NCBI GenBank assembly: GCA_947177485.1
Contig: CAMWUR010000002.1
Span: 1 to 64,000 of the forward strand
From: an uncultured Helicobacter sp.
GTDB taxonomy: Bacteria > Campylobacterota > Campylobacteria > Campylobacterales > Helicobacteraceae
Length of the DNA: 64,000 nt
Direction of reading: 5' to 3'
Numbering within the stretch: position 1 is the first letter of the stretch; the number at the start of each line of letters is the position of its first letter. The notes under the pieces were generated by a model. The model saw only the letters and a program-made list of their open reading frames with translations. It did no database searches and had not been told where the DNA came from. The translations under genes and the position numbers were made by a program. Below are positions 3,872 through 12,723 of the stretch, piece after piece.

Positions 3872-3958
3872 TGGTGCCGAAGGTCGGACTCGAACCGACA
3901 CAGGGTTGCCCCTACTAGATTTTGAGTCTAGCGCGTCTACCAGTTCCACCACTCCGGC
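3872..3958 (-). tRNA. tRNA-Leu (anticodon CAA), CCA encoded
   Basis: Reverse complement GCCGGAGTGGTGGAACTGGTAGACGCGCTAGACTCAAAATCTAGTAGGGGC...GGTTCGAGTCCGACCTTCGGCACCA; class II long variable arm. Confidence 0.95.
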
Positions 3959-3962
3959 AAAA

Positions 3963-4049
3963 TGGTGCGCTGAGCGAGACTCGAACTCGCACGGGAAAAT
4001 CCCACTACCCCCTCAAGATAGCGTGTCTACCAGTTCCACCACCAGCGCA
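3963..4049 (-). tRNA. tRNA-Leu (anticodon GAG), CCA encoded
   Basis: Reverse complement TGCGCTGGTGGTGGAACTGGTAGACACGCTATCTTGAGGGGGTAGTGGGATTTTCCCGTGCGAGTTCGAGTCTCGCTCAGCGCACCA. Confidence 0.95.
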
Positions 4050-8672: not shown

Positions 8673-10802
8673 TTATAGTCCTTCCACAGATATTTTGAGC
8701 GGCAATGTAACAAGTGGTAACAAGCCGACTTCAAACATGATGTATTTTTCTTCTTGCGGGCGCACACCACTAGAAGTAAGCAGAGGGCGCACTTCTGATG
8801 CCAGACGCACGCGATACGAAAAACAGCGAATGGCTTTGTGGATTCCAACATTCCACGTGCGGAAATATTGTCTGTCGTAATCATATCCAATACTACCAAA
8901 TAAATCAAACCATTCAAATCTCTTATTAATTCCAGCATGGATAAAGTTTGCGGCATTCCAATCCCATGTTTGCTCTAAAAAGCGCATATAGGCTCTGCGC
9001 CGAAAATGCCCCGCATAAATGGCGATTTGTTCATCTGTATAGCTCACATCATGTGAAATTTCAGCAATTTTACGTTTTGAGGGAGAATAGAAAAACGAGC
9101 TTGTTAGCGTCCAATTGTCATTTGGAATCAGGCTAATTTCATGTTCAAAATCACCATAGGTTGTTGCGTTGCCATGCGTGTAAATGGGCTGCGCGATTTT
9201 ATGCGCGATTTGCATGCCATTGTTAAAATGGAAGTATTGTTGGGCTTTTAAACCAAGCGCATTATAGTCGCCCTCGATTTCAAAAACATCGTTGCCGCTT
9301 TGATGCAAGAATCCATTCAATTTATAATCGGCTTCAAGATGTAGTGAGTGTAAAAAATCAGAATAGGGACGCGCGAGGTCGCTATAAAATGCAACCCGAT
9401 ATTCGTTGGCAAACACGGTGCCCGGCGTGAGCTCGTTGGGGCGCGAATCGCGCCGATAGAAATCCGCCCTTACGGCTTGAAATTCTGTTGCGACTTTGAA
9501 AAAAAGATAGTCTTGAAATAACGATTGCGTGAAAGCGATGGGCAAATGGATTTCATTCTGGACAATGCTATATCCACTACGAGACGTGTAGTTGTTTGTA
9601 CGAAAGTCGATATTGTATGTAACTTTGTCCCAAAAAAATGGTGCGGTATAGCGGTGGTATTGCAATGAGGGTAAGATTTGTGCCGTATCTTGATTACTGA
9701 TTTGTGCAAGGTCGATTTGATAGCGCACATACGCGCCAAAATAATCATTTGCGCCATTGAGGAAGAAATTGATACGTGATGTAAGCAAACTATCATATAT
9801 ATCCACATCAATGCTGTCATGTTCTCGGATATGTAGATAATCGACATCGTTGATGTTGCTCCAGTCGATATAGAATCCATTTTCATGAAAATGCGATGGC
9901 AAAATCTCAAACAGATTGTAGCGCGTATAAAGCAGCTGAAAGCCCTTGTATTTCGTGTTTGCAAGGTCATATTGTTTTTGATAGGATTCTTTGACACCAA
10001 AATAGCCAAGATTGAGCTTAAGAATCTGATTGGTATCATCAGCATAGCGGTATTCGAGCTCCGCACCATAGCCTCTTTTGCTGCGCATCATTGTTGTAAT
10101 TGTGGCATCTTGACGCTCGTCAATCGCATAGAAAAAGGGCTGATTGTAGACAAATCCATCATTACGAGAGGTCTTGAGACGCGGAAAAAGGAAGCCTGTT
10201 TTGCGCTTTTGGTCAAGCGAAAAGGCAAAATAGGGAAGATAGAAAACGGGATATTTGTAGGCATAGAGCCGTGCATTCCAAAGTGAAAGCCACGAATCTT
10301 CTGTGTTGTAGTTGCCGCTCGAAAAGGCGATGCCCCAGATTGGCAGCTCAATGCTGCATGAAGAAAATGTTGAATTGCGCAATTCATAGGACGTTTTGCG
10401 CATCTCTGCTTCTTGCGCAGTTATCCAAATCCCTGTGGTTGTTTCTTGGAGATAGAGTGGGGCAAGCAAAGCAAAATTTTCATCGAGCTGCAAGCGCACT
10501 TTTTGGGCGCGCATATAGAGAGATTCGCCTTGAAAAACATGTACGTTACCTTCAAGGAGAATCTCGCGCGTTGTTGTGTTGTAGTATGCAAAATCGGCGT
10601 TGGCATAATAGCCACTTGAAACAACAAGGATATTGCCGCTGCCTTCGATGATTTCGCCATTTAGCTCCATAGAATCTGCGAGCAGCTCGAAGATTCTGCG
10701 GTTTTGTGTGTCGTAATGTTCTACGCTAGGCTGCGCTGCCAAAAGGGCAGACAAGGTGAGGCTAATCCAAAGAAAGCGCAATGGTTTTTGCCAATTTGTC
10801 AT
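8673..10802 (-). CDS. lptD: LPS-assembly protein LptD
   Basis: OstA-like N-terminus (ILVVSSGYYANADFAYYNTTTREILLEGNVHVFQGESLYMRAQKVRLQ) plus beta-barrel; likely start is internal Met (MTNWQKPLRFLW) rather than the track's 11018. Confidence 0.9.
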   Translation of the reverse strand: MTNWQKPLRFLWISLTLSALLAAQPSVEHYDTQNRRIFELLADSMELNGEIIEGSGNILVVSSGYYANADFAYYNTTTREILLEGNVHVFQGESLYMRAQKVRLQLDENFALLAPLYLQETTTGIWITAQEAEMRKTSYELRNSTFSSCSIELPIWGIAFSSGNYNTEDSWLSLWNARLYAYKYPVFYLPYFAFSLDQKRKTGFLFPRLKTSRNDGFVYNQPFFYAIDERQDATITTMMRSKRGYGAELEYRYADDTNQILKLNLGYFGVKESYQKQYDLANTKYKGFQLLYTRYNLFEILPSHFHENGFYIDWSNINDVDYLHIREHDSIDVDIYDSLLTSRINFFLNGANDYFGAYVRYQIDLAQISNQDTAQILPSLQYHRYTAPFFWDKVTYNIDFRTNNYTSRSGYSIVQNEIHLPIAFTQSLFQDYLFFKVATEFQAVRADFYRRDSRPNELTPGTVFANEYRVAFYSDLARPYSDFLHSLHLEADYKLNGFLHQSGNDVFEIEGDYNALGLKAQQYFHFNNGMQIAHKIAQPIYTHGNATTYGDFEHEISLIPNDNWTLTSSFFYSPSKRKIAEISHDVSYTDEQIAIYAGHFRRRAYMRFLEQTWDWNAANFIHAGINKRFEWFDLFGSIGYDYDRQYFRTWNVGIHKAIRCFSYRVRLASEVRPLLTSSGVRPQEEKYIMFEVGLLPLVTLPLKISVEGL

Positions 10803-11241
10803 GGAAGCCTCGCCTAAACGGGTCGGCAAAGATTGCGATAAAAGGAAGATAATAGAGCATTGCGCTGATGAGACGAACAATCGAACGAATCGCGGCTTGT
10901 TTGTAGCTCGGGTTGTCGAGCATTGTTGTATCAACCACGCGAATCTTGCAGAGCATTTTGCCCAATGTCGAACCATAGAGCGCAATAAACAGCCAATGGT
11001 AGATAAAAACAAGAACAATGCTCAAAGGAACAAGCGTTAAGATGATTCCCATAAGTGCGTTGCCATCGAGGATTCCGTTTTCGACTTTCAGTGCGGCGAT
11101 GTCGCCATAGACTGTGGCAAGTACGATGAGCGAGAGCAGGGCATCGTCAATGATATACGCAGAAATGCGCGTTTGTAGGTTTGGAATCTTGAGATTCTCG
11201 CGCTCAAGCGTCTCTTCGATTTTGTCATTTTCTGTCTTCAT
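10762..11241 (-). CDS. RDD family membrane protein
   Basis: RISAYIIDDALLSLIVL...WLFIALYGSTLGKMLCKIRVV. Confidence 0.88.
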   Translation of the reverse strand: MKTENDKIEETLERENLKIPNLQTRISAYIIDDALLSLIVLATVYGDIAALKVENGILDGNALMGIILTLVPLSIVLVFIYHWLFIALYGSTLGKMLCKIRVVDTTMLDNPSYKQAAIRSIVRLISAMLYYLPFIAIFADPFRRGFHDKLAKTIALSLD

Positions 11242-12494
11242 TGTAGCGCCCATTGTGCAATGTCATCGCGCATTTGCTTGCCACTAAAGCGCACGCTTTT
11301 GCAGAGAGAATATGCCGAGTTACGCGCCTCTTTGAGGCTGTCGGCGACACCAACGCACGCGATGACGCGCCCGCCTGTGGCGAGCAAATCTTCTCCGCTG
11401 CGCGAAACACCTGCAAAACACAGATGTGCGCCCTGTGGTGAGGGTGGGTCAAATGTAATCACGACAGGCTTAGGCGAGGAATAGGGATATTCGGCTGTGG
11501 CGAGCACAACACAAACAGCGCTTTGTTGTGAGAAACGTACATCGAGATTCTTGAGATTGCCTTGCGCGCATGCGGTGAGCACATCGAGCAGGGGCGTTTG
11601 CAACAAAGGCAGCAAAACTTCGCATTCGGGGTCGCCAAAGCGTACATTGAACTCGAGCAAGTAGGGCTTGGAATCGACAACCATGATTCCAGCAAACAAA
11701 ACGCCCGTGAATGCGCGCTTTTCTTGTCGCATTCCTGCAAGTGTTGGGGCGATGATGGTGCGCGAAATCGTGTCCATAATCTCCGACGTTGCTGCTGGGG
11801 CGGGAGCATAAGCGCCCATTCCACCTGTATTGGGTCCCTTGTTGCCGCTTAGTAGCCGTTTGTGGTCTTGAGCAGCGGGAAACAGCACAAAATCTTCTGA
11901 ATCACACACCGCAAATACAGAAAGCTCAAAACCTTCGAGATATTCTTCGACTACCACACGCTTGCCTGCTTCGCCAAATGCCTCGCCGCTCAACATCGAT
12001 TCGAGTGTCTCGCGCGCCTCCTTTGCATTTTGTGCAATCACCACGCCTTTGCCTGCACAAAGCCCATCAGCTTTGATGACGGCAGGATAGCCGAGCGTAT
12101 TGGCAAAGTCGAGCGCCTCGTTCAAGTCGCTTGTTTGGATAAAACGTGCTGTGGGGAGGTTGTGTCGCTTTGCAAAGTCTTTCATAAACGCTTTTGAGCC
12201 CTCCAAAATCGCTGCTTGCTGGCTTGGACCAAAAACCAAGAATCCTGCTTGTGCAAAAAGGTCACTCACGCCCGCAAGAAGCGGTGCTTCTGGACCAACG
12301 ATAACGAGCGAAATGGGAATGTCTTGTGCGATATTCAAAAGCTCATCATAAGAAGAGGCGATAAGGTTTTTGCCAAGTGTCTCTGTCGCTCCATTGCCTG
12401 GCGCAAAATAGAGCTGTGCAACGCGAGAATCGTTTGATAGTGCTAGTCCTAGCGCATATTCCCTTGCGCCATTTCCTATAATGAGGATTTTCAT
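11238..12494 (-). CDS. purD: Phosphoribosylamine--glycine ligase
   Basis: 418 aa; MKILIIGNGAREYALGLAL, GPNTGGMGAYAP, EFNVRFGDPECEVLLPLL. Confidence 0.97.
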   Translation of the reverse strand: MKILIIGNGAREYALGLALSNDSRVAQLYFAPGNGATETLGKNLIASSYDELLNIAQDIPISLVIVGPEAPLLAGVSDLFAQAGFLVFGPSQQAAILEGSKAFMKDFAKRHNLPTARFIQTSDLNEALDFANTLGYPAVIKADGLCAGKGVVIAQNAKEARETLESMLSGEAFGEAGKRVVVEEYLEGFELSVFAVCDSEDFVLFPAAQDHKRLLSGNKGPNTGGMGAYAPAPAATSEIMDTISRTIIAPTLAGMRQEKRAFTGVLFAGIMVVDSKPYLLEFNVRFGDPECEVLLPLLQTPLLDVLTACAQGNLKNLDVRFSQQSAVCVVLATAEYPYSSPKPVVITFDPPSPQGAHLCFAGVSRSGEDLLATGGRVIACVGVADSLKEARNSAYSLCKSVRFSGKQMRDDIAQWALQ

Positions 12495-12496
12495 AG

Positions 12497-12711
12497 TCGA
12501 GGATTCTCCGATGAGTGGTATAGCCCCAAATGACCGTTACCAACGCTATTTTGGCCCCAAAAAGCCAACAACTTAGGCACAAGCATTCTATTAGGCGCAG
12601 AACCTCACCACTAGGGCTACAAGCGGAAATGCGACACACCAAAATGACTATGCACCCAAACACACTTCGATTGTTAGACCGCATTGTGTTGGAATCTCGA
12701 ATCATCTAGGA
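12497..12711 (-). ncRNA. ssrS: Structured RNA upstream of purD; candidate 6S RNA (ssrS) / 'purD RNA motif'
   Basis: ~215-nt non-coding interval; TATAAT at 12723-12718; 5' end (CCUAGAUGAUUCGAGAUUCC) can pair with 3' end (GGAGAAUCCUCGACUAUG) via UAG/CUA, UCGAG/CUCGA, AUU/AAU and CC/GG. Class assignment is by recall and position, not covariance search. Confidence 0.6.
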
Positions 12712-12717
12712 ACGCGC

Positions 12718-12723
12718 ATTATA
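12718..12723 (-). promoter_or_regulatory. -10 box TATAAT of the purD-leader RNA
   Basis: Minus strand GAGGGCTATAATGCGCGTTCCTAG. Confidence 0.65.

What the first reader, a model, noticed from the sequence alone, without database searches (positions are those of the whole stretch)
12495..12723. Structured RNA upstream of purD with own promoter; closing stem includes a candidate purD SD (6S RNA / 'purD motif' candidate)
Seen: TATAAT at 12723-12718, then ~215 nt without a convincing ORF. The RNA 5' end can pair with the 3' end (UAG/CUA, UCGAG/CUCGA, AUU/AAU, CC/GG), and the 3' strand contains GGAG and ends directly at the purD AUG. Established: a 'purD' RNA motif was reported in epsilon-proteobacteria, and 6S RNAs are ~180-220-nt closed-stem RNAs; the link between them is from memory. 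Inference: folding could limit purD translation, or the RNA may be processed from the purD transcript.
Basis: partly seen in the sequence, partly recalled or inferred. Interest (0 to 1): 0.65.

Follow-up and report, generated by a model that had tools for sequence, protein, structure and literature searches.

The report
6S RNA gene upstream of purD
The stretch before purD encodes 6S RNA, the well-known small RNA that imitates a promoter to tie up RNA polymerase, in the gene position already published for Helicobacter pylori and Campylobacter jejuni; it is an ordinary member of a known kind.

Summary
Rfam's purD motif (RF01069) matches 12651-12524(-) at 59.5 bits. That model is only the middle of a ~188-nt RNA, about 12711-12523(-), starting 7 nt after TATAAT (12723-12718).

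The true closing stem, 12710-12698 with 12536-12525, is absent from RF01069. It forms in 98.2% of cells over 51 genomes, with changes on both sides in 8 of 12 pairs. A full-length covariance model hits 246 of 249 Campylobacterota genomes, and 0 of 70 purD loci from elsewhere.

Rfam's canonical 6S model (RF00013) matches the same RNA end to end in seven relatives (27.8-45.2 bits, all below its 46.4-bit cut-off). C. jejuni and H. pylori work (PMC3847290) already calls this purD-upstream RNA 6S and reports a pRNA.

The RNA persists where purD is not adjacent, so it is a stand-alone 6S RNA, not a purD riboswitch. Novelty: new member of a known kind. Interest is low.

The parts
12718..12723 (-). 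-10 element TATAAT of the 6S RNA promoter
   Evidence: Sequence; exact TATAAT at the matching place in 43 of 51 homologous loci, counted. No -35 consensus found, in line with reported epsilonproteobacterial promoters (gnTAnaAT -10; PMC3847290).
12523..12711 (-). 6S RNA, about 188 nt (5' end near 12711-12710, 3' end near 12523; both inferred)
   Evidence: Full-length model R1: 12522-12712(-), 137.6 bits, E 4.4e-32 (the window is in the training set). C. jejuni homologue reported as 185 nt (PMC3847290).
12698..12710 (-). closing stem, 5' strand (CCUAGAUGA-U-UCG, one bulged U)
   Evidence: Covariation: helix 1, 98.2% of cells paired, 8 of 12 pairs with changes on both sides.
12525..12536 (-). closing stem, 3' strand (CGGUCAUUUGGG)
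   Evidence: As above; pair probabilities above 0.99 in the isolated RNA.
12661..12697 (-). 5' side of the central bubble (expected template for pRNA)
   Evidence: Position between the closing stem and the inner stem; pRNA assignment by analogy with C. jejuni and H. pylori (PMC3847290).
12652..12660 (-). inner stem next to the bubble, 5' strand (UUUGGGUGC)
   Evidence: Pairs with 12580-12572; helices 2-3 (79.9% and 68.7% of cells paired, partly limited by alignment).
12572..12580 (-). inner stem, 3' strand (GUGCCUAAG)
   Evidence: As above.
12524..12651 (-). match to Rfam RF01069 (purD motif): apical arm, 3' side of the bubble and its hairpin, 3' closing strand unpaired in that model
   Evidence: 59.5 bits, E 1e-8, model 1-125 of 125.
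12551..12568 (-). small hairpin in the 3' side of the central bubble (UUGGC...GCCAA)
   Evidence: Helix 7 (78.0% of cells paired, both-sided changes in all 5 pairs); predicted in most of 51 sequences folded singly.
12495..12522 (-). spacer between 6S RNA and purD; holds the candidate Shine-Dalgarno GGAG (12509-12506); not part of the RNA
   Evidence: Not conserved in sequence or in pairing among 47 loci.
11238..12494 (-). purD (phosphoribosylamine-glycine ligase), 418 aa
   Evidence: ORF; TIGR00877 matches the window's genome at 1.1e-140.

Best explanation
The element is the 6S RNA gene (ssrS) of this Campylobacterota bacterium (family Helicobacteraceae, inferred from its neighbours). It is transcribed from its own sigma-70-type promoter immediately upstream of purD. 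The ~188-nt RNA folds into a rod: a 12-bp closing stem, an open central bubble with a small hairpin on its 3' side, and a long apical arm. As established for 6S RNA, this imitates an open promoter, so housekeeping RNA polymerase holoenzyme binds it and is held back. When nucleotides become plentiful, the polymerase copies a short pRNA from the 5' side of the bubble and is released. Shown here: gene position, structure, covariation, phylum-wide conservation, homology to canonical 6S RNA. Inferred from the family and from published C. jejuni and H. pylori data: transcription, polymerase binding, pRNA synthesis.
For: RF01069 match, E 1e-8. Conserved closing stem absent from RF01069: 51 loci, 98.2% of cells paired. 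Whole structure: 89.1% of cells paired against 71.3% after shuffling and 38-47% when slid; both-sided changes in 36 of 40 pairs; covariation score 0.616 against 0.270. Full-length model present in 246 of 249 Campylobacterota genomes, almost always single copy, and in 10 of 10 Campylobacterota but 0 of 70 other purD loci. RF00013 covers the RNA end to end (model 1-187) in L047 (45.2 bits), L014 (33.9), L016 (29.4), L020 (27.8) and weakly L011 (19.8). In whole genomes the significant RF00013 hits, G224 (38.2 bits, E 3.5e-6), G214, G197 and G039, coincide within 4 nt with R1 hits. Published: C. jejuni purD-upstream 185-nt RNA with 6S fold and a 13-nt pRNA; same locus in H. pylori (PMC3847290). 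Architecture as described for 6S RNAs in general (PMC8876501).
Against: RF00013 does not score this window's RNA, and its best score on the phylum's RNAs is just under its gathering cut-off (45.2 against 46.4). The minimum free energy is not unusual (z -0.21). No RNA-seq, polymerase binding or pRNA data exist for this organism here.
Confidence: 0.95

Rival explanations
1. A cis-regulatory leader of purD (purine riboswitch or attenuator), as the Rfam type 'Cis-reg' of RF01069 implies.
For: RF01069 is filed as Cis-reg; purD lies downstream on the same strand in 47 of 51 loci.
Against: The RNA is kept where no purD follows: L013, L042, L047 and L048, and purD lies elsewhere in G032, G049 and G083. 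Spacer length and sequence before purD vary. The closing stem and 6S architecture are conserved, and the canonical 6S model matches relatives end to end. C. jejuni transcript data show a discrete 185-nt RNA (PMC3847290).
Confidence: 0.03
2. 6S RNA whose 5' end can alternatively pair with the purD leader and hide its Shine-Dalgarno in read-through transcripts.
For: In this window the alternative pairing is possible (forced energy -60.6 against -62.3 kcal/mol) and the closing stem probability falls to 0.45 when the leader is attached.
Against: Leader pairing is within chance (14-24% of shuffles as good) and is not conserved: 1 of 47 leaders.
Confidence: 0.04
3. An ordinary 5' UTR with chance base pairing.
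For: Folding energy is no lower than for shuffled sequence.
Against: Strong covariation and phylum-wide conservation.
Confidence: 0.005

Closest known systems
6S RNA of Campylobacter jejuni and Helicobacter pylori (upstream of purD)
   Same: Same position before purD, own sigma-70-type promoter, length 185 against ~188 nt, closing stem / bubble / apical arm (PMC3847290).
   Different: Different species; transcription and pRNA not measured here. The upstream gene is reported to differ between those two species as well.
Rfam RF01069 purD RNA motif
   Same: Full-model match at 59.5 bits.
   Different: RF01069 covers only 125 positions, lacks the 5' bubble strand and the closing stem, and is labelled cis-regulatory.
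Rfam RF00013 6S / SsrS RNA
   Same: Same rod with closing stem, bubble and apical arm; end-to-end matches in seven relatives at exactly this RNA.
   Different: The window's own RNA is not found by RF00013; Campylobacterota 6S RNAs are too diverged from its seed.
Bacillus subtilis 6S-1 RNA
   Same: A small 3' bubble hairpin is predicted already in the free RNA, as reported for 6S-1 (PMC8876501).
   Different: No conserved central-bubble collapse helix could be shown here (5 of 51 sequences at p<0.05).

Membership tests
RF01069 purD motif | covariance model score above gathering cut-off | tested here: met
   59.5 against 41 bits
RF01069 purD motif | cis-regulation of purD | tested here: inconclusive
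   Adjacent to purD in 47 of 51 loci, but kept without adjacent purD in L013, L042, L047 and L048; regulation itself not testable
6S RNA | closing stem of 5' and 3' ends | tested here: met
   12 pairs, 98.2% of cells paired, 8 pairs with both-sided changes
6S RNA | central bubble between closing stem and apical arm | tested here: met
   No conserved pairing between the two sides of the bubble; covarying stems on both sides of it
6S RNA | homology to experimentally recognised 6S RNA of the same phylum | tested here: met
   RF01069 and R1 matches upstream of purD, the position reported for C. jejuni and H. pylori; Campylobacter showae L089 matches R1 at 72.5 bits. The H. pylori and C. jejuni sequences themselves were not retrieved by name
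6S RNA | binds housekeeping RNA polymerase holoenzyme and templates pRNA | not testable with these tools
   Needs experiment; a 13-nt pRNA is reported for C. jejuni (PMC3847290)
Rfam RF00013 (as a model, not as the biological family) | match above gathering cut-off | tested here: not met
   No match in the window; best homologue L047 45.2 against 46.4 bits. Read as a limit of the model's seed: sub-threshold full-length hits fall exactly on this RNA in relatives

The most novel reading that the evidence does not exclude
The widespread placement of 6S RNA before purD couples 6S RNA output to purine synthesis: read-through transcripts would make purD expression and 6S processing interdependent.
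Probability: 0.1. Interest if true: 0.5.

Novelty: new member of a known kind. Interest (0 to 1): 0.2.

Why it matters
It is useful as annotation: RF01069 is a truncated 6S RNA with a misleading cis-regulatory label, and a full-length model finds 6S RNA in nearly every Campylobacterota genome, where the standard RF00013 model finds almost none. It adds no new biology about this locus beyond what was published for C. jejuni and H. pylori.

Tried and rejected
(1) Minimum-free-energy z-score as evidence: uninformative. (3) An alternative pairing of the 5' bubble strand with the 3' bubble or with the 3' closing strand (a collapse helix), first suggested: only 2 and 5 of 51 sequences reached p<0.05, so dropped. 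(4) Consensus promoter and terminator scan: no sigma-70 consensus promoter and no terminator at the RNA; epsilonproteobacterial promoters lack a -35 consensus. (5) mafft-qinsi structural alignment: not usable here; realigned with the covariance model instead. (6) The PurD-based genome scan returned no record titled C. jejuni or H. pylori, so the functional anchor is the literature plus synteny.

Full report
Observation. Read on the minus strand, TATAAT lies at 12723-12718 and purD starts at 12494. Rfam's purD motif RF01069 matches 12651-12524(-) with 59.5 bits, E 1e-8, over the whole model. Folding energy alone would not have shown this: the minimum free energy is like that of shuffled sequence (z -0.21).

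Boundaries and structure. RF01069 was found in 51 of 59 related genomes. Reading those loci outward showed a conserved TATAAT, then typically 7-10 nt later a CCUGAGUG-type sequence. That sequence pairs with the CACUUGGG-type sequence at the end of the RF01069 match. In the window this closing stem is 12710-12698 with 12536-12525. RNAalifold finds it on its own in a sequence alignment. After realignment with a covariance model built from that alignment (R1), 40 pairs give 89.1% paired cells, against 71.3% in shuffles and 38-47% in slid versions. Both-sided changes occur in 36 of 40 pairs, and the closing stem is 98.2% paired. The realignment leans towards the model, but the closing stem was already near-perfect in the plain MAFFT alignment. 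The inner stem (12660-12652 with 12580-12572), the apical arm and a small 3' bubble hairpin complete a rod with an open centre, which is the 6S RNA architecture described in PMC8876501.

Is it 6S RNA? RF00013, Rfam's 6S model, does not score the window. In relatives it does: L047 45.2 bits, L014 33.9, L016 29.4, L020 27.8, L011 19.8 (the last not significant), each over model positions 1-187 and with ends at the closing stem found here. Its gathering score is 46.4, so none passes formally. In whole-genome searches of megabase genomes the significant RF00013 hits were G224, G214, G197 and G039; all four coincide within 4 nt with R1 hits. The whole-genome search did not report G049, whose locus L047 scores 45.2 when scored directly. 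PMC3847290 reports that the most transcribed non-coding RNA of C. jejuni after rRNA and tRNA lies upstream of purD. That RNA is 185 nt long, starts further upstream than the earlier proposed purine riboswitch, has the 6S fold and gives a 13-nt pRNA; the same region in H. pylori holds 6S RNA.

Distribution. R1 hits 246 of 249 Campylobacterota genomes, all but one of them with a single copy. Among 80 named purD loci it hits all 10 from Campylobacterota (some overlap the training set) and none of 70 from other groups. This fits a housekeeping RNA of the phylum.

Relation to purD. purD follows on the same strand in 47 of 51 loci. In four it does not. In L042 the next gene encodes an RDD-like membrane protein, resembling the one that follows purD in the window; L013 is followed by what looks by eye like a fructose-1,6-bisphosphatase gene; L047 and L048 have other contexts. 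In G032, G049 and G083 purD lies on another contig or about 150-200 kb away. An RNA kept without its supposed target is not a dedicated purD leader.

The proposed pairing of the 5' end with the purD leader, including the Shine-Dalgarno region, has ensemble probability 0.06-0.11 and is matched by 14-24% of shuffled leaders. Only 1 of 47 leaders is better than chance at p<0.05, against 42 of 47 for the real 3' arm. Start-codon choice is automatic and wrong for some loci (leaders given as negative lengths were not testable); this does not affect the window. The candidate Shine-Dalgarno GGAG (12509-12506) lies about 13 nt beyond the RNA's 3' end.

Mechanism. By established knowledge of 6S RNA (PMC8876501), the rod imitates an open promoter and sequesters housekeeping RNA polymerase; synthesis of a short pRNA from the 5' bubble strand refolds and releases it. 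None of this was measured here. A conserved collapse helix could not be shown.

Verdict. A correctly spotted, ordinary 6S RNA gene; new member of a known kind. The modest useful outcome is that RF01069 is a truncated 6S RNA model with a misleading cis-regulatory label.

Noticed in passing
window 3875-3958 and 3966-4048 (-): Two adjacent tRNA genes on the minus strand (RF00005 matches).
   Followed up: no
window 10762-11253 (-) and L042 from about position 607: The RDD-like membrane protein gene after purD has a counterpart directly after the 6S RNA in L042, where purD is not at the locus: local order 6S-(purD)-RDD.
   Followed up: partly
genome G237 (Campylobacterota, f11 g62): Lacks a match to the full-length 6S model and has no purD match above cut-off (best E 3.1e-8), so the whole locus may be lost or unassembled. 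G145 and G194 also lack a 6S match but have purD.
   Followed up: no
genome G101: The only genome of 249 with two matches to the full-length 6S model; the second copy was not examined.
   Followed up: no
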